Position numbers and translations under genes: made by a program
Part shown: piece after piece, positions 3,770 to 30,445 of the stretch
How positions within the stretch are numbered: the stretch's first letter is position 1
How the letters are laid out: each line of letters opens with the position of its first letter
The notes under the pieces: model-generated
Databases searched by the model: none
What the model was told of the DNA's origin: nothing
Seen by the model: only the letters and a program-made list of their open reading frames with translations
Assembly: GCA_913056195.1 (NCBI GenBank)
Contig: CAJXMF010000033.1
Coordinates: 1-35,234 of the forward strand
Direction: 5' to 3'
DNA length: 35,234 nucleotides
Origin: an uncultured Methylococcaceae bacterium
GTDB lineage: Bacteria > Pseudomonadota > Gammaproteobacteria > Methylococcales > Methylomonadaceae

Positions 3770-6004
3770 ATGAGTGAAAATTTTACCGATATTGCCGGCC
3801 ATCCGATCACCGAAACAGATATTAACATGCTATTACTCGGTTTTAATTTAAAAGACCGTTATCAGATGCCACCTGAGGCCATGGGCTCCCATAAACCAGC
3901 GGATGCTTCAGGACTCCTACAAAAAGATGCCTTTAAAGCATTGGGTTTAAATCCAGACCGCTCAATCCGCGAGCAATTGGGCGGGCCGAAAAATTACACG
4001 TATCAAATTCATAAATCAAAATCTGATAACACGGTCTTTTATCTGAAACTTGAACCGGATGACAACAGCAATTCTATCCTGTGGTACAAATTCACAGCAA
4101 AGCCCAATATAGATCCTGCCCGTGCACCCACTGTGACAGATGAACAAATTGCCCAAACTGAACGTGCCGCCGAGACACTGAGCCAACTCTCTTATGCATT
4201 GGCGCCCTATAATATTCCGCCAAAACATCTACAAATCGCCCTGGCGACAAGCGACCGATCGCTAATTGGCGAGGATATGGCGCGCATCAACAAGGCCGGC
4301 CAATTACCCCAGTTTTCAGAGGACGTAATCAATGCCGTCATGCCGCCCGAAAAGAACCAGGATGGCACGGATGCAACAACCGAACAGATTGAAGCCAATA
4401 AAATTCGTAACGAAATCATGGCCGACAATCTGCATGCCACAATTCTCAGTGAATTATTATTGCATCAAAAAGCGACTCTAAACGATGGACGCGTCTATAA
4501 AACGCCCGACACAATTGCTAATGAAGTTGATGACAAGTTAAAGCAACTCAACCAGCTCCGCAAAGATCTGAATATCCCCAGCATGGAGCCCATGTATTAC
4601 AGCATTGACAAACAAATGGCGCTTTTCAGCAGCGGCCAACCCTATCACCGAAACGATATTATCCGTTATGAGGTATTAAACAAAATTCAGGAAATCGTCA
4701 CCCCTGAAGCCGACATGAGCGAGCCGGAATTTGTCTGGGGTAATCGTGTGGTGTTCATGGCTGATGGCTTTAAGGCCTTTAATCAACGTCTGGCAGACAT
4801 TGACCGCCTGATTGCGCTGGCTGAATCCGGTAAATCTGTGACTTATGATTATACGGTTTGGAAGCACTATGACGATAAACCAGCCGACCCACATCATCTA
4901 GGCGTTAAACTGCGTGACAAATTATTACAATTAGCCGATGCCGGTGCTCAGTGTCACATAACCGTGGATAGAACTGTCGCATTTCGCGACCCTACGGTGA
5001 TTGTCGTCGATCCGGATAGCGGAACCGTTTTAGGGGGCCTGCTGGCGCCGCTTGCTGAACATCCGAATATCAATCTCAGTTTTTTTAACAATGATGAACG
5101 CGGTACACCAGGCGACTCCAATCATTCAAAATCAGCCGTTGCCGATGGCTATCAAAAAGATGCTTCAGCAATCGTGGGTGGCCGAAATATTCATGGCAGT
5201 TATTTTTTCGATTGGCTGGATGGAGAGTTTTTTATTGAAGGTGAACTCGCACAATCCGTACAAAAAGCAGAAGATGATATGTGGATTCAACAAGCCCGCA
5301 TGCATCAGAAACCCAATCTCATCCGTCAAAACACAGGCTTTCAAAAGCCGGATAAAAAAGGCGATATTATCGGACTGGCAACACATGAAATGCCTGGGCC
5401 TGATTCGACCTTCAACGGCCTTATCGGCGTATTAAGTGGCTTTGAAATTTCCGGATTTGAATTCACCTTGATACAGGCTTATGTTTTACCGCCCATTCCC
5501 GGTGCAAAAATCGACCCTACCCTGGAAGTCATAAAACGCGCTGTTCGAGATGGCCGCATTATCAATATTGTGACTAACTCACCTGAAACCATCGATGTTC
5601 CTCAAATCAGCAGCGCCATCGTCAAATATGCCGCACATCTGCTCGAACAGGTCAATAATATGCCGGATGCAAGTGGCGCCCTGCGTATATTCATGAAAAA
5701 GAAATGGGACGGCATCGGCGGCGGCACACTGCATGCCAAAATTGCTTATGATGATAAATGGTATGTCAGCGATACCAGCAACAATCTTCATGCCAATGGC
5801 TTTTTACAACACGAAAGCCAACGTTATTATTTAGATGACGAACTGAACGAACCGGTACGAGCATGGGGCAAACGGCTTATCGAACGCTGTGATATGTACA
5901 CGGCGCCACAGCAACTTTGGGATATAGCGAAAAAAATCGATGCTTCTAACGCATTAAATCCGGCGCTTAATGCATTGCTGACTTTATTTCCTTATCAGGT
6001 GTAA
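3770..6004 (+). CDS. Phospholipase D superfamily protein, two HKD motifs
   Basis: The 744-residue protein has two HxKxxxxD motifs: H452/K454/D459, followed by GGRNI as in cardiolipin synthases and phospholipases D, and H655/K657/D662, followed by SNN. Two complete motifs in one chain would form one active site. The first 400 or so residues are unlike anything I recognise and are mostly soluble and charged, with no signal peptide or obvious membrane segment. The family cleaves or transfers phosphodiesters of lipids or nucleic acids through a phospho-His intermediate; the substrate here is unknown. A GGAG-like ribosome binding site precedes the ATG. The next gene, a serine hydrolase, starts 13 bp after the stop, so the two probably form an operon. 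Confidence 0.82.
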   Translation: MSENFTDIAGHPITETDINMLLLGFNLKDRYQMPPEAMGSHKPADASGLLQKDAFKALGLNPDRSIREQLGGPKNYTYQIHKSKSDNTVFYLKLEPDDNSNSILWYKFTAKPNIDPARAPTVTDEQIAQTERAAETLSQLSYALAPYNIPPKHLQIALATSDRSLIGEDMARINKAGQLPQFSEDVINAVMPPEKNQDGTDATTEQIEANKIRNEIMADNLHATILSELLLHQKATLNDGRVYKTPDTIANEVDDKLKQLNQLRKDLNIPSMEPMYYSIDKQMALFSSGQPYHRNDIIRYEVLNKIQEIVTPEADMSEPEFVWGNRVVFMADGFKAFNQRLADIDRLIALAESGKSVTYDYTVWKHYDDKPADPHHLGVKLRDKLLQLADAGAQCHITVDRTVAFRDPTVIVVDPDSGTVLGGLLAPLAEHPNINLSFFNNDERGTPGDSNHSKSAVADGYQKDASAIVGGRNIHGSYFFDWLDGEFFIEGELAQSVQKAEDDMWIQQARMHQKPNLIRQNTGFQKPDKKGDIIGLATHEMPGPDSTFNGLIGVLSGFEISGFEFTLIQAYVLPPIPGAKIDPTLEVIKRAVRDGRIINIVTNSPETIDVPQISSAIVKYAAHLLEQVNNMPDASGALRIFMKKKWDGIGGGTLHAKIAYDDKWYVSDTSNNLHANGFLQHESQRYYLDDELNEPVRAWGKRLIERCDMYTAPQQLWDIAKKIDASNALNPALNALLTLFPYQV

Positions 6005-7398: not shown

Positions 7399-8595
7399 AT
7401 GCGAGCCATTCTTCTCATTATCAATACCGGCTCATCCAGTATCAAATTTGCTGTTTTTTCAGCGCAACAACTCAGCTGTTTATACCGGGGACAAATCCAG
7501 GGTATTGGCATCACGGAAGGTTCTTATTTCTCAGTTCAGAACTTAAACGACAACAACCCGCCAACCAAACAAAAAACGGTCGCCGACACCCATCGACAAG
7601 CCCTGGCAACACTGATGCAGTGGCTGGCGGATCATCTTGCCGACTTTCATTTACAGGCTGTCGGCCACCGTATTGTTCATGGTGGTCATCAATTTACACA
7701 ACCTGTGGTCATTGATGCCGACGTTATGCAACAGTTGCGCAAACTGATTCCACTGGCCCCGCTGCATCAACCGCATAATCTGGCCGCTATCGACATCTTG
7801 CAACACCTGCATCCTGATTTAACACAGGTCGGCTGTTTTGATACGGCCTTTCATCATACTCAACCTAAAGTCGCGCAAACCTTTGCCTTACCGAAAGACT
7901 TGTTTACAGAAGGCGTCCGCAGCTACGGGTTTCATGGTTTATCTTATGAATATATCGCTAACGTCCTGCCGGATTATGCCGGCGTTGCCGACACCGGTAA
8001 AACGGTTATCGCTCACCTTGGACAAGGTGCCAGTCTGTGCGCCTTACAGAACCAGAAAAGCCTGGCGACGACCATGACTTTTACGCCGCTTGACGGCCTG
8101 CCTATGGGAACCCGTTGCGGCGCGATAGATCCGGCTATCGTGCTGTATCTGCTCCGGCAAAAACAACTTTCGCTGACCGAAGTTTCCGATATGCTGCACT
8201 ATCAATCGGGGCTTCTCGGCTTATCGGGCATCAGCGGTGACATGCAGATTTTACTCAATAGCGACCATCCCGATGCCGCATTTGCGATTGACGCCTATGT
8301 CTATCGCATCGTTTGCGCTATCGGCTCGATGACAGCGGCTATTCAAGGACTCGACAACCTGGTTTTCAGTGCCGGAATTGGCGAACATGCGCCGCTGATT
8401 CGCGCAAAGATTTGCCAGGGACTTGGCTGGTTGGGCGTTAAGCTCGATGACAGCGCCAACCGCGAAAATGCGACAAAAATAAGCGGCCAACACAGTACCG
8501 TCAACATCTGGGTCATCCCCACGAATGAAGAAAAAATGATTGCAATACATACCCATTCATTAACTCATGGAAAAACCAATGAAGCAACCGACTGA
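7399..8595 (+). CDS. ackA: Acetate kinase
   Basis: This interconverts acetyl-phosphate plus ADP with acetate plus ATP in the cytoplasm. At 398 residues it has the usual family length. Visible signatures are NTGSSSIKF at residues 9-17, GHRIVHGG with Arg91 (the conserved substrate arginine), [10 protein letters not shown], the [10 protein letters not shown] loop, and GLSGISGDM. The ATG at 7399 has no strong ribosome binding site. The gene overlaps the phosphoketolase start by 17 bp, so the two are almost certainly co-translated. With phosphoketolase upstream in the pathway it would capture acetyl-phosphate energy as ATP. It is the first gene of an eight-gene cluster, behind 163 bp of non-coding DNA in which I found no convincing promoter. 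Confidence 0.97.
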
Positions 8596-10963
8596 AAATT
8601 TTGAGAAACCGCTTTCTGATGATGAATTAAGACGAATGGATGCCTATTGGCGGGCCGCGAATTATTTATCTGTCGGCCAGATTTATCTGATGGACAATCC
8701 CTTGTTGAAACAACCTTTAGAGCTTTCGCATGTTAAGCCACGATTGCTTGGACATTGGGGCACCACGCCGGGATTGAATTTTATTTATGTCCATTTCAAC
8801 CGCGTCATTAAACAACGCGAGCTCAATGTCATTTATATTACCGGCCCGGGCCACGGTGGCCCGGGATTGGTCGCCAATACTTACCTGGAGGGAACATACA
8901 GCGAAATTTATCCGAATGTTTCTCAGGATGAACATGGCATGAAACGGCTGTTTAAACAGTTTTCATTTCCCGGCGGTATCCCCAGTCATGTGGCACCCGA
9001 AACTCCCGGCTCGATTCATGAAGGCGGTGAATTAGGTTATTCACTCGCGCATGCCTTTGGCGCTGTGTTCGACAACCCTGACCTGATCACCTGTTGCGTG
9101 GTCGGCGATGGTGAAGCGGAAACCGGCCCTTTGGCCACCAGTTGGCATGGGAATAAATTTTTAAATCCTGAACGCGATGGCGCCGTGTTGCCTATCTTGC
9201 ATTTGAATGGCTATAAAATTGCCAATCCCACTGTTTTAGCACGTATTGATCATGATGAATTGAATGCCTTATTTGTGGGGTATGGCTATAAACCCTATTT
9301 TGTTGAAGGTGATGAGCCTGAATTGTTACATCAGCAGATGGCAGCGACCCTGGACAAGGTGCTGGATGAGATAAAAGCCATTCAACAGAATGCGCGCCAA
9401 AATGGCTTCCAAAAACGCCCCGCCTGGCCCATGATTATTCTGCGTACCCCCAAAGGCTGGACCGGACCGAAAAAAGTGGATGGCATACCGATAGAAAACA
9501 CCTTCCGCTCACACCAGGTTCCCTTAACCGGCTTCAGCGAAAACCCCGAACACCTGAGACTGCTGGAGCAGTGGATGCAGAGTTACCGGCCGGAAGAACT
9601 GTTCGATGAAAACGGCAAACTCATCGATGAATTGGCCGAACTCGCACCCACCGGCGAGCGCCGCATGGGCGCCAATCCGCACGCCAATGGCGGGACTCTG
9701 CTCAAGGCATTGCGTATACCGAATTTTCGCGATTATGCTGTCGATATGCGCCAACCGGCAACGACAATCGCCGAGGCCACCCGGATTATGGGACGCTTTC
9801 TCAGGGATGTCATGCAGGCCAATAGCGACAGCCGGAATTTCAGAGTCATGGGGCCCGATGAAACGGCATCCAACCGCCTGACTGCGTTATTCGATGTCAC
9901 TGATCGCGTGTTTACGGCCGAAACGCTGGATGGCGATGATCATCTCTCTGCTGATGGTCGGGTCATGGAAATCCTTAGCGAACACCAGTGTCAAGGCTGG
10001 CTGGAAGGTTATTTGCTCACCGGTCGCCATGGATTGTTCTCCTGCTATGAAGCCTTTATCCATATCGTTGACTCGATGTTCAACCAACACGCCAAATGGC
10101 TGAAAGTCACCAATCAAATCCCCTGGCGCCGCCCTATCGCCTCACTCAACTACCTGCTGACCTCTCATGTCTGGCGGCAGGATCATAATGGTTTCAGTCA
10201 TCAGGATCCTGGCTTTATCGATCATGTCGTCAATAAAAAATCGGACATCATTCAGGTTTATCTCCCCCCCGATGCCAATACACTGTTATGGGTAACTGAC
10301 CACTGCCTGCGCAGCCGGGACAAAATCAATGTCATTGTCGCCGGCAAACAGCCGGAACTCCAATATCTCTCCATGGACGCGGCCATTAAGCACTGCAGTG
10401 CCGGCATCGGCATTTGGGAATGGGCCAGCAATGACCAAAATACTGAACCGGATGTCGTGATGGCCTGTGCCGGCGATGTACCGACACTGGAAACGCTCGC
10501 CGCAGTTTCATTATTGCGCCAGTATTTCCCTGACTTGAAAGTCCGCGTTATCAATGTCGTCAATCTGATGACCTTGCAACCGCCATCAGAACATCCCGAT
10601 GGTTTGTCTGACCGTGATTTTGATTCGCTGTTTACGAAAGAAAAACCCATTATTTTCGCTTTTCATGGCTATCCGTGGTTAATCCATCGCCTGTGCTATC
10701 GTCGAAGCAATCATAAAAACCTGCATGTGCGAGGCTATAAAGAAGAAGGCACAACCACCACACCGTTTGACATGGTCGTTTTAAATGAACTCGACCGATT
10801 CCATCTGGTCATTGATGTGATTGACCGGGTTGAAAAATTAAATGTCACCGGTGCGCATGTCAAACAAGCCATGCATAATCAGTTAGTCGAACATAAGGAA
10901 TACATTACCCGTTTTGGCATCGATAAACCGGAAATACGCAACTGGAACTGGCCTGTGGAATAA
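8579..10963 (+). CDS. xfp: Xylulose-5-phosphate/fructose-6-phosphate phosphoketolase
   Basis: This thiamine diphosphate enzyme splits xylulose 5-phosphate (and often fructose 6-phosphate) with phosphate into acetyl-phosphate and an aldose phosphate. At 794 residues it is full length. Family motifs include GPGHGGPG at residues 89-96, [10 protein letters not shown], the cofactor motif [19 protein letters not shown] and [10 protein letters not shown] chose the ATG at 8579, with a GGA about 8 bases upstream; an ATG at 8567 would add four residues. It overlaps ackA. Phosphoketolase next to acetate kinase is known from aerobic methanotrophs and lactic bacteria. Whether it prefers the xylulose or the fructose substrate cannot be read from sequence. 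Confidence 0.97.
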
Positions 10964-10976
10964 CATAATCAAGCTC

Positions 10977-11012
10977 TGTCGGACAGGCTATACGTTACTT
11001 CCCTGTTCGACA
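10977..11012 (+). other. Hairpin between xfp and the small cysteine-rich gene
   Basis: TGTCGGACAGG (10977-10987) can pair with CCTGTTCGACA (11002-11012), 11 bp with one G-U pair and a 14-base loop. No T-run follows, so it is probably not an intrinsic terminator. Lying inside an apparent operon, it could set the stability or relative level of upstream and downstream mRNA segments. Its role is inferred. Confidence 0.55.
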
Positions 11013-11032
11013 CGCGCTAAAAATAAGGATAA

Positions 11033-11377
11033 ATGATGATAAATAATAAAAATAAATCAGTGTCTCTGCCTGCTCAGCAGGTTTCAGAAAAACAGCACAA
11101 TCACAAAAAAAATCCTGCCGAATTGCTCATCAATATCTATATCCATCAATGCTATGAAGATGGCGGCATTACACTAGTCAATCTACGGCATCTGGCGCAT
11201 TTGCTTGGCATTAAAAATCATGACACGTTCGATTCCGAAGAAGAACTGCTGAAAGCCATTCAGAAAGCCGTGCAAAACCGCACTTGTTTTCGTTCAGATC
11301 AGTCTGAAAATTGTCCTGAGACAGACTGTCAATGGAAAACCGAATGTAAAAAAATAATCGCCGAGTGGCTACGATGA
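11033..11377 (+). CDS. Small cysteine-rich protein, function unknown
   Basis: I do not recognise this 114-residue protein. The N-terminus is polar. The middle (about 30-80) should be helical, with a GGITLVNLRHLAHLLGI stretch that could be a small helical domain. The last third holds four cysteines, C85-X8-C94-X4-C99-X5-C105, plus an isolated C40. The cluster could bind zinc or an iron-sulfur centre. AAGGA precedes two consecutive ATGs (11033 and 11036), and either may be used. The stop overlaps the next gene by 4 bp (ATGA), so it is probably translated together with the acyltransferase. That coupling suggests an accessory or regulatory role at the acetyl-phosphate node, but nothing in the sequence proves it. 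Confidence 0.72.
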   Translation: MMINNKNKSVSLPAQQVSEKQHNHKKNPAELLINIYIHQCYEDGGITLVNLRHLAHLLGIKNHDTFDSEEELLKAIQKAVQNRTCFRSDQSENCPETDCQWKTECKKIIAEWLR

Positions 11378-12297
11378 ATAATGATTATCAACCCCGCCGA
11401 CTCCAGGAACTGATTAAACTGGCCCAGTCCCTCCCTGCCGTCACTGTTGCTGTCGTAGATGCCGGCGAAGAGCATGTGCTGAGAGGTGCTTTTGAGGCGG
11501 CTGACGCCGGTCTTATCAACCCCATTCTGGTGGGTCAACAAGAAAAAATTGCTAGTCTTTGTCAACAACTGGGTTATTCAAGTCAACGTTTTACACTGAT
11601 TGAAGCAAACTCTGAACAAGAAGCCGCGCAAAAAGGTATCGAGCTGGTTCAGACCGGGCAAGCGCAAGCTTTGGCCAAAGGCTGGATTCATACCGACGCG
11701 TTGATGCGGCCGGTATTAAAATACTTACGCACAGAGCGCCGCGTCAGTCATGTCTTTGTTGCCGACCTGCCCGCTTATCATAAGCTTCTGTTTATTACCG
11801 ATGCCGCAATCAATATAGAGCCCGATTTAATGACCAAAGCGGCCATCGTCCAAAATGCCGTTGATCTGGCTCAAATTTTAGGCGTACAACAGCCTAAAGT
11901 TGCCGCATTATCTGCGGTGGAAGTTGTTAAGCCGGCCATTCAGTCAACCTGTGATGCGGCCTGCCTGAGCAAGATGGCGCAAAGAGGTCAGATCAGCAAT
12001 GCCATCGTTGATGGCCCCTTGGCTTTTGATAATGCAATTTCCAGACAAGCGGCCGAAATCAAACGCATAAACAGTGATGTTTCCGGTGATGTGGATATTC
12101 TGCTGGCGCCAGATTTGCCGGCAGGCAATATTTTAGCCAAAGATCTGGAATACCTGGCTAATAGCGCTTTAGCCGGTATTGTCATTGGCGCTCGAGCACC
12201 CGTTATACTGACCTCCCGTTCAGATGGTGAAGTTGCCCGCATTGCCTCTGCGGCTATTTGTTCACTGGTCAATCAACATTGGAAGACAATAGACTAA
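11374..12297 (+). CDS. Phosphate acetyl/butyryltransferase family enzyme
   Basis: The 307-residue protein belongs to the PTA/PTB family, which exchanges acyl-CoA and phosphate with acyl-phosphate and CoA. The N-terminal AGEEHVLRGAFEAADAG and the C-terminal GDVDILLAPDLPAGNILAKDLEYL segment are typical of the short Ptb-like branch, which is also found fused to enoyl-CoA hydratase domains. No such fusion is present here. I chose the ATG at 11374, which overlaps the preceding stop; an in-frame GTG at 11365 would add three residues. Between xfp/ackA and pyruvate dehydrogenase, acetyl-phosphate/acetyl-CoA exchange is the likely job. Butyryl or other acyl specificity cannot be excluded. Confidence 0.9.
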   Translation: MNNDYQPRRLQELIKLAQSLPAVTVAVVDAGEEHVLRGAFEAADAGLINPILVGQQEKIASLCQQLGYSSQRFTLIEANSEQEAAQKGIELVQTGQAQALAKGWIHTDALMRPVLKYLRTERRVSHVFVADLPAYHKLLFITDAAINIEPDLMTKAAIVQNAVDLAQILGVQQPKVAALSAVEVVKPAIQSTCDAACLSKMAQRGQISNAIVDGPLAFDNAISRQAAEIKRINSDVSGDVDILLAPDLPAGNILAKDLEYLANSALAGIVIGARAPVILTSRSDGEVARIASAAICSLVNQHWKTID

Positions 12298-26417: not shown

Positions 26418-28583
26418 ATGAATAATAATGATAATAAAAAATTTCCCGCCGCCAACCAGTTAAAAAAACTCAGAACAACACTGGCCATCTTGCAAGGCAC
26501 CCACCTCTTATCCACATTGTCTCGAGAAGCTGAAGCGACTGTTTCTCATGACCAGACCAAACGCGTCACCTATTTGACCATGTTATTCACCCGTATCCAT
26601 CGGGATATTTTTCATGACTGGAAAGACCAGGCCAGTGTCAATCACAGACCAGGCATCATTATTTCCGCCGTCACTCGAAAACGCTTTCGTAACACCATTG
26701 GCCAGCTGGTGCTTGATGGCCAAAAAAACAAAGACACGGCGATATTCGACAACAATGGCTTTGTCATCTACACCGAAAATATTGCCGATCGACTGGCGTG
26801 TTTTTATCAGGAAATGCGACACATACGACCATTTTCCTATGGCAACCGGATTACACTTGATTTATTTATGAGCACGCTAGGACGTTTGCCAGCCTTTAAA
26901 GCCGTTTATGAAGCCGGAATTGATTTTAGACGATTGGCCAAAGGCGACGCCGCCATTCTTCATCGTCCAGACAGCAACCTTAAGCAAATCAGCCTCGCCT
27001 TTCAACACGCATTAGATCCAATCCGCAATAAAACCCTGGCAAACAAAGCAAATAACTACGGCACCTGGCCGGAAAACAAATATTTTCTGTCAGGCATTCC
27101 GTTTCTATCGCATACCACAGAAGATGGCGTGTTGTGTTTAGTCACCGTAACAGGTGGACTGGTGCCAGTTAATAGCATTACCGGAGACCCATTCAGCGAA
27201 GGCAAACACCTGGCCGACAGTCCTTTGAGTATTGCCGAAAAAATAATCGGCTATCTGCCGGGCACAGAATACCTTCGACATCCCGATAAACGACTGATTG
27301 ATGGTATCCCCATTCGAGAAGATGGCGTTGCCCCCTTGTTTTGCCTGGATGTCAATATGCTGACCGGCCTACGCACCCCCAGTCACATGGAGTTTCTGGA
27401 TCTTCTAAAAGAATGTGAAGGGGATAAAAAGCATTTATTTAAAGTTGCCAATAACGAGCCGCTTAAAAAACGTCTGCTTGCCGCCGCCGATGGCGATAAA
27501 CGCCTGGAACGAACCGTTGAAATCGCCTATGACAGACTCTGCCGCATCCAACGGATTTTAATCAATACCCGACAAAAAATATTCGAGGGTAAATCCCCCG
27601 TCCTCAAGCCTAAACTATTCATGAGCATGGGGGGCGCCGGCGCCGGAAAAACCGCCGTCGAAGAAATCGCCGCCGCCCAATGCGGCGACAACTATGTCAT
27701 CGCTTCACTGGACGAATTCCGTAAATTAAGTGATTTATACAACATCCTGACCGCAGCCAACCACCACAGTGACGACTATGTTTATGTCGAGCCCTTTGCC
27801 AATCGACTGCGCGATATGGTCGCGCAACACGCCAAAGAAGCCGGTATCAATATACTCTACGATGGCACTGGTATCCCCTATCAACCACGCTACTCTACCA
27901 TTATTCAGGAATTTAAAGCCGCCGGCTTCCATACTCAAATAACCGCCGTCGATGCCTTTCTGGTCAAGCCACATGGACGTGAAACCGAGCTATCCCGCTG
28001 CGGCGTTATCGAAAGCGTTAAAGAACGCTTTAAACGTACCGGCCGCGCCTTACCCTGGGTCATTACCATCGACAAACATATCCGCGCCCCGCGTTCGTTT
28101 CTAACCGCTGTCGAAGATCCGCACCTGGAAAAAATCACCTTATTTGCCAATGATGGCGATATTGACCAGCATTACCTGGTCGCTGAAAGTTTTACTTTAT
28201 CTGAACGCGAAATCAATGCCTTACAACAACACCAGTCCCAACATTCACTGCAACCCTTTTTAAAAACATTAATTCTTGAACACCCGGACTCATTTCTAAA
28301 AAAACTGGCAGGACATCATCAACAGAAATTGCAATTATTGATTCAACGCAACCCCGACTTTACTGAAAACAATGTAGCTTACCAAATTTACAGCAATCCA
28401 TTCGGTTTACGCGGTCTGGTTATCTATAACAGTCAACGCTGGATAGACTTCCTGCAGAAAAGACAACTCAACCCCAATGCATCGGGCGAAGAAGGCTTAT
28501 TACATAAATCTGATGCCTTGATCTTTCACGTCGACCCTTTAGCTGACACCCCCTGGATCACCCGTTTGCAAGGTGAAGATTGA
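26418..28583 (+). CDS. Fusion protein: degenerate Fic-like domain and zeta-toxin-like kinase
   Basis: The 721-residue protein appears to hold two toxin-type folds. Residues about 50-175 resemble Fic: IHRDIFHDW, a long helix pair, and RPFSYGNRITLD at 137-148. The usual HPFx(D/E)GNGRxxR has lost its His (Arg137), acid (Tyr141) and later Gly-Arg, so classical AMP transfer is unlikely. Residues about 175-395 are unrecognised. Residues about 398-590 resemble zeta toxin kinases: Walker A GGAGAGKT (405-412, Lys411), LDEFR as the substrate-side acid motif, then ILYDGTG and GRETELSRCGV. Zeta toxins phosphorylate UDP-N-acetylglucosamine precursors or nucleotide-like targets; the target here is unknown. 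The tail (about 600-721) is unrecognised. GAGGA precedes the ATG. No epsilon-like antitoxin is adjacent. No signal peptide is seen. Confidence 0.72.
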   Translation: MNNNDNKKFPAANQLKKLRTTLAILQGTHLLSTLSREAEATVSHDQTKRVTYLTMLFTRIHRDIFHDWKDQASVNHRPGIIISAVTRKRFRNTIGQLVLDGQKNKDTAIFDNNGFVIYTENIADRLACFYQEMRHIRPFSYGNRITLDLFMSTLGRLPAFKAVYEAGIDFRRLAKGDAAILHRPDSNLKQISLAFQHALDPIRNKTLANKANNYGTWPENKYFLSGIPFLSHTTEDGVLCLVTVTGGLVPVNSITGDPFSEGKHLADSPLSIAEKIIGYLPGTEYLRHPDKRLIDGIPIREDGVAPLFCLDVNMLTGLRTPSHMEFLDLLKECEGDKKHLFKVANNEPLKKRLLAAADGDKRLERTVEIAYDRLCRIQRILINTRQKIFEGKSPVLKPKLFMSMGGAGAGKTAVEEIAAAQCGDNYVIASLDEFRKLSDLYNILTAANHHSDDYVYVEPFANRLRDMVAQHAKEAGINILYDGTGIPYQPRYSTIIQEFKAAGFHTQITAVDAFLVKPHGRETELSRCGVIESVKERFKRTGRALPWVITIDKHIRAPRSFLTAVEDPHLEKITLFANDGDIDQHYLVAESFTLSEREINALQQHQSQHSLQPFLKTLILEHPDSFLKKLAGHHQQKLQLLIQRNPDFTENNVAYQIYSNPFGLRGLVIYNSQRWIDFLQKRQLNPNASGEEGLLHKSDALIFHVDPLADTPWITRLQGED

Positions 28584-28828: not shown

Positions 28829-29545
28829 ATGATTTTCAGACAATTTATTGAACCGGTCAGCAGCACCTACACCTATTTACTCGGTTGCGAATACAGCGGT
28901 AACGCGATCTTGATCGATACGGTCACCAGTCAAACAGAGTTTTACATTCAACAATTGGATGATCTGGATCTGGATTTGATCTATACGGCTGAAACCCATG
29001 TCCATGCCGATCATATAACAGCCGCGGCTGTCTTGCGCGAACGTTTGGGCAGTAAAAGTATTGTCCACCGCGATGCAGGTGCCTCGTGCGCCGATTTAAT
29101 GGTCACCGATGGCGTCATTTTGCAGGTGGGGGAAATTATCATCAAGGTACTGCATACGCCGGGACACACCAATGGCTGTGTCAGTTATTTACTGGATGAC
29201 CGTGTTTTTACCGGTGATTGTCTGCTGATTAACGGCTGCGGTCGCACCGATTTTCAGCAAGGCGACGCCAAAACCATGTATGAAAGCATCACCCAAAAAC
29301 TGTTTACCTTGCCTGACGATACGCTGGTTTATCCCGGCCACGATTATAAAGGGATGACGGTATCGACGATAAAACAGGAAAAAGCGTTAAATCCACGCCT
29401 GGGTAATCAGAAAAGCTGTGAAGAATTTATCGAGATCATGAATAACCTCAATCTGCCCTATCCTAAATTTATCAACGAAGCCTTACCCGCCAACCAATCC
29501 TGCGGACAGGTTGACGCTGATGCCGGCCAGGTTATTCAAGGCTAA
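28829..29545 (+). CDS. Persulfide dioxygenase (ETHE1-like metallo-beta-lactamase fold)
   Basis: This family oxidises glutathione persulfide to sulfite with molecular oxygen. The 238-residue protein has the HVHADH motif (H57, H59, D61, H62). The likely iron ligands are H57, H113 (TPGHTNG) and D130 (FTGDCLL), the ETHE1 pattern; the latter is followed by GCGRTDFQQG, and YPGHDYKG (H171) closes the site. There is no fused rhodanese domain and no signal peptide. GGAAAAGG precedes the ATG. A sulfite-exporter-type permease starts 12 bp after the stop, which fits removal of the sulfite product. Among metallo-beta-lactamase-fold hydrolases the GCGRTDFQ signature makes the dioxygenase call fairly firm. 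Confidence 0.9.
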   Translation: MIFRQFIEPVSSTYTYLLGCEYSGNAILIDTVTSQTEFYIQQLDDLDLDLIYTAETHVHADHITAAAVLRERLGSKSIVHRDAGASCADLMVTDGVILQVGEIIIKVLHTPGHTNGCVSYLLDDRVFTGDCLLINGCGRTDFQQGDAKTMYESITQKLFTLPDDTLVYPGHDYKGMTVSTIKQEKALNPRLGNQKSCEEFIEIMNNLNLPYPKFINEALPANQSCGQVDADAGQVIQG

Positions 29546-29557
29546 GGACGCAAAAAC

Positions 29558-30445
29558 ATGACGCTTATTGCGCTATTATCGATTGTTATCGGTATTTTAC
29601 TGGGTTTGCTTGGTGGCGGTGGATCAATTCTGACCGTCCCTGTTCTGGTCTATCTCGCCAAGCTTTCAGCCCAGGAAGCCATCGTCACTTCATTGATTGT
29701 GGTGTGCCTCACCAGCCTGATTGCGGTCGTTCAACATGCTCGACATCGGCGTGTCTGTTGGAAAACGGGGCTGACCTTTGGTACCGCCGGCATGCTGGGC
29801 GCATTTTACGGTGGCCAATTATCAGCCTATATTCCAGATGCTATTTTGCTGGTGCTGTTTGCACTGATCATGATCATAGCGTCAATCTCGATGATTCGGA
29901 AACCCAAAAATGCACCCGCACCGATACAAAACTGCGAAGAAAACTTCTGCCCCAAAAACCTTCCCGTTTCGGCAATTTTGCTGGATGGTGTGCTGGTGGG
30001 CCTGATTACCGGTTTAATCGGTGTCGGCGGTGGTTTTTTGCTGGTTCCGGCATTGACGTTGTTGGCGGGCCTCCCGATTCAGGCGGCGATTGGCACATCC
30101 TTGTTTATCATCGTCTTGCAATCGATTTCGGCATTGGCAGGTCACGCTGGCCATATTGATTTAAATATTCCACTCACAGCGACAGTGACACTCTGTGCCA
30201 TTGTTGGCAGCTTTGTTGGCAGCTATTTATCTCACATCATCCACACACGTCACCTGAAACCAGGATTTGGGGTGTTTGTATTATTGCTGGGCAGTTTTTT
30301 GCTTTATCAGGAAATGTCGCAACAATTGATAGTGCAAATCCATGATTTAATCATCCAGAACAAGGAATTTCTGCTCGGCGGCCTGAGCATTCTACTCATC
30401 CTGGCATTTTACCGTTTCTGGGCCTGGTTGCATCGGCCCAGCTAA
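29558..30445 (+). CDS. TauE/SafE family permease, probable sulfite exporter
   Basis: The 295-residue membrane protein has the internal duplication of the TauE/SafE family: GLLGGGGSILTVPVLVYL near residue 16 and GLIGVGGGFLLVPALTLL near residue 152, each followed by membrane helices. About eight or nine membrane segments are likely. A central loop with two cysteines (near 128-132) separates the halves. Members move organosulfur anions or sulfite across the inner membrane. The close downstream position to the persulfide dioxygenase favours sulfite export. It ends 5 bp from the convergent hppA stop, so any terminator must lie inside one of the two genes. Confidence 0.88.
   Translation: MTLIALLSIVIGILLGLLGGGGSILTVPVLVYLAKLSAQEAIVTSLIVVCLTSLIAVVQHARHRRVCWKTGLTFGTAGMLGAFYGGQLSAYIPDAILLVLFALIMIIASISMIRKPKNAPAPIQNCEENFCPKNLPVSAILLDGVLVGLITGLIGVGGGFLLVPALTLLAGLPIQAAIGTSLFIIVLQSISALAGHAGHIDLNIPLTATVTLCAIVGSFVGSYLSHIIHTRHLKPGFGVFVLLLGSFLLYQEMSQQLIVQIHDLIIQNKEFLLGGLSILLILAFYRFWAWLHRPS

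What the first reader, a model, noticed from the sequence alone, without database searches (positions are those of the whole stretch)
26418..28583. Solitary Fic-like/zeta-toxin-like fusion of 721 residues
One protein carries a Fic-like region with a broken motif (Arg137 for His, Tyr141 for the acid) ahead of a zeta-type kinase with intact Walker A and LDEFR. Both folds are toxin or effector modules, usually found alone and with an antitoxin. No antitoxin gene is adjacent. The dead Fic region may serve as an internal inhibitor, a targeting domain or a new activity, while the kinase stays active. About 350 residues in the middle and tail match nothing I know.
Basis: partly seen in the sequence, partly recalled or inferred. 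Interest (0 to 1): 0.72.

Follow-up and report, generated by a model that had tools for sequence, protein, structure and literature searches.

The report
Solitary pseudo-Fic plus zeta-type kinase protein
Many methane-eating bacteria carry an old stand-alone protein that joins a Fic-shaped domain, stripped of its usual catalytic residues, to a toxin-like kinase, and its strong conservation suggests a regulated enzyme rather than an ordinary toxin-antitoxin pair.

Summary
The 721-residue ORF is real. The C-terminal half is a zeta-type kinase: Pfam PF06414 E 1.3e-19, zeta structure Z 14.9, Lys411 and Asp432 in 41 of 41 aligned sequences. The N-terminal 204 residues take a Fic fold in the predicted model (Z 12.2), but sequence evidence alone is sub-threshold, and the Fic motif is lost in all 41: consensus [RK]PFxYGNR. 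The protein matches in 168 of 301 genomes of a methanotroph order; outside it, the class and phylum samples gave one 25% kinase-only match. Genera group together in the gene tree, dN/dS is 0.03-0.09, and no neighbour recurs in more than 6 of 40 loci. This does not look like a mobile toxin-antitoxin module. Two zeta UDP-GlcNAc-site residues are replaced in all 41, so the substrate probably differs. Most likely it is a self-contained kinase in which the pseudo-Fic domain is a regulatory or ligand-binding module; the single-chain zeta EzeT is the nearest precedent. Substrate, toxicity and regulation are untested. My paper searches showed no description of such a fusion.

The parts
26418..28583 (+). 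whole gene, 721 aa pseudo-Fic / zeta-type kinase protein
   Evidence: ORF; matches in 168 of 301 genomes of the order
26418..27029 (+). residues 1-204, Fic-fold domain
   Evidence: AF2 model matched to Bep8 Z 12.2, EcFicT Z 11.5, VbhT Z 11.4; sub-threshold Pfam Fic in some homologs
26826..26849 (+). residues 137-144 RPFSYGNR, degenerate Fic motif
   Evidence: position 137 R in 37 and K in 4 of 41; 141 Y in 40 and F in 1; G142 and N143 in 41 of 41; 144 R in 38; aligned to the EcFicT motif at low score
27030..27335 (+). residues 205-306, middle region without a recognised fold
   Evidence: no sequence or fold match; inconclusive
27336..28487 (+). residues 307-690, zeta-type kinase fold
   Evidence: Pfam PF06414 at 394-580; zeta 1gvn Z 14.9 (model 307-681), PezT Z 13.2, AvrRxo1 Z 10.7
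27630..27653 (+). Walker A, residues 405-412 GGAGAGKT, Lys411
   Evidence: K411 in 41 of 41, 412 T in 33 and S in 8
27708..27722 (+). residues 431-435 LDEFR; Asp432 aligns with the catalytic Asp67 of zeta
   Evidence: alignment; L431, D432, F434, R435 in 41 of 41, 433 E in 38 and D in 3
27861..27893 (+). residues 482-492 DGTGIPYQPRY, altered acceptor-site motif (zeta has EGTGRT)
   Evidence: alignment; D482, G483, T484, I486, P487, R491, Y492 in 41 of 41
28488..28580 (+). residues 691-721, partly conserved C-terminal tail that may fold back on the Fic domain
   Evidence: tail columns; in 17 of 37 Fic rows the structural alignment ends at model residues 709-718; pLDDT 54-84 there

Best explanation
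It is a self-contained, regulated zeta-type kinase of methanotrophs. Shown by computation: a Fic-fold N-terminus (in a predicted model) with a lost Fic motif, a zeta-fold kinase with intact catalytic residues, single-gene inheritance within genera of one order, and purifying selection on both halves. Inferred: the kinase phosphorylates a small molecule other than UDP-GlcNAc. The Fic domain no longer transfers AMP; it works as a built-in regulatory module that binds a ligand or anchors the protein's own C-terminal tail and so sets kinase activity. No separate antitoxin is needed.
For: Zeta HMM and fold. Walker A Lys and catalytic Asp in 41 of 41. Of the five UDP-GlcNAc-binding residues listed for zeta in PMC4938570 (E100, T118, R120, T121, T128; passages), T118 is kept as T484 in all 41; R120 and T121 align with I486 and P487 in all 41; E100 with D466 (majority residue); T128 with T494, which is T in the window but in only 16 of 41. 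Fic fold with the catalytic His and the acidic residue replaced in all 41. dN/dS 0.026-0.089 over seven pairs, 0.043-0.081 for the Fic part and 0.022-0.111 for the kinase part. All 8 genera with two or more rows form one group each in the gene tree. No neighbour family in more than 6 of 40 loci. Small ORFs within 400 bases are alike only between 6 pairs of loci, five of one genus and one of two sister genera. The structural alignment runs into the tail in 15 single-domain Fic rows (NmFic and like) plus 2 Bep rows. Precedent for a zeta kinase controlled in cis: EzeT (PMC4826407; PMC5923241 passages).
Against: No activity, substrate or regulation has been shown. There was no match at E 0.001 in 133 of 301 genomes of the order, 98 of 228 good ones among them, so it is dispensable. 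Sequence evidence for Fic is sub-threshold; profile-profile comparison with 19 Fic proteins of the order gave 3.6% probability, about the same as a control with the middle region, 3.0%. In Foldseek only zeta and PezT chains reached E 0.001; Fic chains came at 0.03-0.05, behind some unrelated P-loop proteins. The five AF2 models differ in mean pLDDT from 84.2 to 68.2, and the Fic part was not folded alone. In the gene tree the families of the order do not separate: L055 (f4) and L058 (f5) fall among f1 rows with support 84 and 94, so old transfers between families are possible, and no species tree was built for comparison. The tail placement rests on first and last aligned residues only. The tail is not uniformly constrained (dN/dS 0.27 in one pair). 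A changed acceptor site does not prove a changed substrate, and the T128 pairing shifts in another alignment.
Confidence: 0.5

Rival explanations
1. A single-chain toxin-antitoxin protein like EzeT: the pseudo-Fic and middle regions are a fused antitoxin that keeps a growth-arresting zeta kinase silent until stress or proteolysis releases it.
For: Zeta kinase with intact catalytic residues and no conserved neighbouring antitoxin gene; EzeT has an N-terminal cis antitoxin and a C-terminal zeta kinase (PMC4826407).
Against: R120 and T121 of the zeta UDP-GlcNAc site replaced in all 41; inheritance within genera and a single match in 161 of 168 carriers is unlike a mobile toxin-antitoxin module, though it does not exclude a resident one.
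Confidence: 0.25
2. The Fic domain has a changed but live chemistry (not AMP transfer) and the two domains act as a bifunctional enzyme.
For: G142-N143 in all 41 and basic residues R134 (41), R137 (R 37, K 4) and R144 (38 of 41) around the motif; Fic part under purifying selection; one Doc-like clade with Gln for the motif His is argued to be possibly active (PMC4454073 passages).
Against: Catalytic His and acid replaced in 41 of 41; in the ungapped reading both motif arginines are lost too (I/L/F at 145, D/N at 148).
Confidence: 0.12
3. A secreted or injected effector or defence protein.
For: Fic and zeta folds both occur in effectors (Beps, AvrRxo1); weak PADLOC PDC-S04 match at residues 119-155, E 0.008.
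Against: No neighbour gene conserved widely (the neighbours were clustered, not all named); no match in the plasmid, phage or viral collections; slow evolution within genera. Secretion signals were not tested.
Confidence: 0.06
4. The N-terminal match to Fic is a coincidence of helical bundles and the region is an unrelated helical domain.
For: Sub-threshold HMM scores, insignificant hhalign result, Foldseek E 0.03-0.05 for Fic chains.
Against: 37 of the 50 listed structural rows are Fic proteins, and no other helical fold is among those 50; the profile aligns the motif stretch with that of EcFicT (11.1 bits); Pfam Fic match over positions 5-85 of 93 in L056.
Confidence: 0.07

Closest known systems
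Zeta toxin / PezT (PF06414)
   Same: kinase fold, Walker A, catalytic Asp position
   Different: no antitoxin gene found; about 300 extra N-terminal residues; UDP-GlcNAc-site residues R120 and T121 replaced by I and P in all 41
EzeT of E. coli (single-chain zeta, known here from PMC4826407 and PMC5923241)
   Same: zeta kinase preceded by an N-terminal domain in one chain, no separate antitoxin
   Different: EzeT is described as a UDP-GlcNAc kinase with an N-terminal antitoxin domain; here the N-terminal domain is Fic-shaped and the carriers are methanotrophs. The EzeT sequence was not compared here
AvrRxo1 (zeta-like NAD kinase effector)
   Same: zeta-type kinase fold, Z 10.7, with changed acceptor residues
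   Different: AvrRxo1 is a secreted effector paired with Arc1; nothing here points to either, but secretion was not tested
Fic proteins, nearest Bep8, EcFicT, VbhT
   Same: helical Fic fold and motif position; EcFicT is also described as having a somewhat degenerated motif
   Different: catalytic His and acid lost; fused to a kinase

Membership tests
Zeta toxin family (PF06414) | HMM score above curated cut-off | tested here: met
   70.9 bits against 22.3; also above cut-off in all ten homologs shown singly
Zeta toxin family (PF06414) | Walker A Lys and catalytic Asp | tested here: met
   K411 and D432 in 41 of 41
Zeta toxin family (PF06414) | UDP-GlcNAc-binding residues E100, T118, R120, T121, T128 | tested here: not met
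   align with D466, T484, I486, P487, T494; R120 and T121 replaced in 41 of 41, T484 kept in 41, T at 494 in 16 (residue list)
Type II epsilon/zeta toxin-antitoxin system | adjacent antitoxin gene | tested here: not met
   no conserved neighbour or small ORF; contrast L033, where a 118-codon ORF overlaps the start of the zeta gene
Zeta toxin family (PF06414) | toxicity on expression | not testable with these tools
   needs an experiment
Fic/Doc family (PF02661) | Fic fold | tested here: met
   Z 12.2, rmsd 3.4, 170 aligned, on a predicted model
Fic/Doc family (PF02661) | Pfam score above cut-off | tested here: not met
   no match for the window protein at E up to 10; best homolog shown 16.5 bits against 24
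Fic/Doc family (PF02661) | motif HxFx(D/E)GNGRxxR | tested here: not met
   His and acid replaced in 41 of 41; motif arginines also replaced in the ungapped reading (motif as given)
EzeT-like single-chain zeta | N-terminal domain inhibits the kinase in cis | not testable with these tools
   needs an experiment
AvrRxo1-type NAD kinase | phosphorylates NAD | not testable with these tools
   needs an assay

The most novel reading that the evidence does not exclude
A new kind of signalling enzyme in methanotrophs: a former AMP-transferase pocket has become a nucleotide or anion sensor, plugged by the protein's own C-terminal tail, that switches a zeta-fold kinase acting on a metabolite not previously known as a zeta-kinase substrate.
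Probability: 0.25. Interest if true: 0.75.

Novelty: new variant of a known kind. Interest (0 to 1): 0.5.

Why it matters
Zeta kinases and Fic proteins are studied mostly as toxins kept in check by partners. Here both folds sit in one slowly evolving protein with no partner found. It offers a testable case of how toxin folds are turned into resident regulation, in bacteria that consume methane. The 41 aligned sequences and their invariant residues make the substrate and the role of the dead Fic half directly testable.

Tried and rejected
Mobile toxin-antitoxin module: judged unlikely, because genera group together in the gene tree, no neighbour family recurs in more than 6 of 40 loci, and no match was found on plasmids, phages or viral contigs. 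Against a simple picture: some loci do share two or three neighbours across genera and even families (L049 with L058, L053 with L055, L046 with L057). In one search L054 dropped out (its gene was not picked), so the count is over 40 loci including the window.

Homologs outside the order: the class sample (369 genomes, a few of them of the order) gave one hit outside the order, a 25% match to residues 392-509 only, in what looks like an ordinary two-gene zeta locus. The phylum sample (398) gave only the window's own genome. An N-terminal profile on 274 class genomes gave, besides G000 and G008, one hit at E 0.006, in a frame that by eye resembles a hydroxyisourate hydrolase (name recalled). A kinase-part profile on 248 class genomes gave only the window's own at E 1e-6. 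These samples overlap and do not cover other phyla. The genome-contig scan was made with a single protein and found one locus; an alignment query would have been more sensitive.

Middle region: residues 203-392 were folded alone; no Foldseek match with E under 0.001, and best VIA Z 3.4, on its helical part. This does not show a new fold. A profile of the same stretch found nothing among PDB sequences. In the same kind of search with the Fic part the best hit was an unrelated phosphatase, E 0.12, ahead of EcFicT at 0.23. Profile-profile comparison used 19 of the 24 motif-bearing Fic proteins (one truncated and four of the GNKR kind were left out): not significant, control about equal.

Upstream motifs: among 38 upstream stretches (L034, L064 and L073 left out as near-copies) only A/T-rich words reached or slightly passed the background maximum. 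Class III inhibitory motif [ST]xxxE[GN] in the tail: not seen by eye; E691 and E692 vary.

Literature: searches for a Fic-zeta fusion or a methanotroph zeta protein returned no paper whose listing describes this protein. None of the 15 papers listed (of 550 holding two or more terms) holds 'zeta toxin'; the rest were not seen. Full texts of the hits were not read.

Full report
Setting. The window is contig C33 of a 2.5 Mb genome in 76 contigs. 35 of 41 genomes searched, its own among them, carry a PmoA/AmoA-family gene. I therefore take the order to be Methylococcales; that name is inferred and is given by no call (the taxonomy of the endosymbiont says only unclassified Gammaproteobacteria).

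Observation. The ORF at 26418-28583 (+) encodes 721 residues. Pfam finds Zeta_toxin at 394-580, E 1.3e-19; the other three families listed score below their cut-offs. Sequence search of PDB finds zeta (E 2.2e-07) and PezT (4.8e-05). Fic is not found by sequence in the window protein. Of 41 sequences (the window and 40 homologs) 7 match Fic weakly; of ten homologs looked at singly, two match it, at 16.5 and 14.5 bits against a cut-off of 24, over 81 and 85 of 93 model positions.

Structure. The best AlphaFold2 model from 41 sequences has mean pLDDT 84.2 and pTM 0.82; the other four models average 78.1 to 68.2. Of the 50 structures listed by VIA-align, 37 are Fic proteins and 13 are P-loop kinases. 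Best rows: zeta 1gvn Z 14.9 (rmsd 3.4, 223 aligned, model 307-681), PezT 13.2, AvrRxo1 10.7; and for model 2-204 Bep8 12.2 (rmsd 3.4, 170 aligned), EcFicT 11.5, VbhT 11.4. Foldseek alone gives zeta E 1.9e-08, with only zeta and PezT chains under 0.001, and Fic chains at E 0.03-0.05 with probability 1.00, behind several unrelated P-loop proteins. Mostly helical models can reach Z near 13 by chance according to the tool's note, so the Fic call rests on the uniform list of Fic proteins and on the motif position, not on Z alone; the Fic part was not folded by itself. The middle region, about 205-306, has no match.

Tail. In 17 of the 37 Fic rows the last aligned model residue is 709-718: 15 entries of NmFic, EfFic, HpFic and Mycoplasma Fic, plus two Beps. 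In the other 20 (FicT, VbhT, other Beps, human FICD, and the NmFic S182A/E186A entry, whose own chain is aligned only to residue 168) it is 209 or less. NmFic is the class III example, with its inhibitory helix at the C-terminus (PMC3667792 passages); that EfFic and HpFic are class III is recalled. This suggests that the tail (conserved at L684-A688-S689, L694-K697, W713, L717-Q718) returns to the Fic domain near the inhibitory-helix site. It is a lead, not a demonstration: pLDDT there is 54-84 and only range ends were seen.

Fic motif. The position of the catalytic His is R in 37 and K in 4 of 41; the acidic position is Y in 40 and F in 1; Gly142 and Asn143 are in all 41. The profile aligns this stretch with the EcFicT motif, at 11.1 bits. 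EcFicT itself is described as having a somewhat degenerated motif (PMC5033356 passages).

Kinase site. Lys411, Asp432 and Arg435 are in all 41; 412 is T or S; they align with zeta K46, D67, K70 and T47 (residue list). The zeta UDP-GlcNAc residues E100, T118, R120, T121 and T128 align with D466, T484, I486, P487 and T494. T484, I486 and P487 are in all 41; 494 is T in the window but in only 16 of 41, and its pairing shifts in the profile alignment. The ordinary-looking zeta protein in L033 keeps the R-T pair (EGTFRT) and has a 118-codon ORF overlapping its start. Arg537 and Arg543 are invariant and may be lid arginines; this was not aligned.

Distribution and inheritance. 168 of 301 genomes of the order match at E 0.001, 130 of 228 good ones, 30 of 50 genera. 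159 of the 168 have a best E of 1e-200 or lower; nine are weaker, one of them (G271, 1.9e-10) perhaps another zeta protein. 161 have one match; 7 have two, all in assemblies of 160 or more contigs, not checked further. In the gene tree of 41 sequences all eight genera with two or more members form one group each, and the 25 labels need 24 changes, the minimum. The families do not separate: L058 (f5) sits with two f1 genera (support 94) and L055 (f4) with others (84). Seven close pairs give dN/dS 0.026-0.089 overall, 0.043-0.081 in the Fic part and 0.022-0.111 in the kinase part; the middle and tail vary more (tail 0.27, middle 0.15 in L035/L036); dS is above 1 in four pairs, so those values are rough. 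No neighbour family recurs in more than 6 of 40 loci, though some loci share two or three neighbours across genera.

Reading. The broken Fic half is constrained about as strongly as the kinase in close pairs, so it is not debris. A partnerless kinase with a changed acceptor site and inheritance within genera fits a resident, self-regulated enzyme better than a toxin-antitoxin module. The single-chain EzeT shows that cis control of a zeta kinase exists (PMC4826407, parts 1 and 2 of 3 read; the primary EzeT paper was not read). That review mentions zeta fused to phosphatase and peptidoglycan-binding domains, and separately multidomain Fic proteins; in the parts read it does not mention this combination. 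Function, substrate and regulation remain inference.

Noticed in passing
window 7399-12297: Acetate kinase, phosphoketolase and a phosphate acetyl/butyryltransferase lie close together, a phosphoketolase route to acetyl phosphate and acetate.
   Followed up: partly
window 3770-6004: 744-residue ORF with two HxKxxxxD-like stretches (phospholipase D-like by eye) and no Pfam or NCBIfam match at the limits used, followed by a DUF900 alpha/beta hydrolase.
   Followed up: partly
window 28829-30445: Metallo-beta-lactamase-fold hydrolase followed by a TauE-type exporter, a pair suggestive of sulfur handling, downstream of the finding.
   Followed up: partly
G000:C52:3338-3625 (L087) and G000:C34:31881-32126: The same genome has two separate Fic matches above the Pfam cut-off; the one in L087 has a canonical HPFMDGNGR motif.
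   Followed up: partly
L033 967-2264: What looks like an ordinary two-gene zeta locus in another gammaproteobacterium; the 118-codon upstream ORF has no Pfam match.
   Followed up: partly
L049 and L058; L053 and L055: Loci from different families of the order share three neighbouring genes at different distances from the kinase gene, perhaps relics of an older shared location.
   Followed up: no
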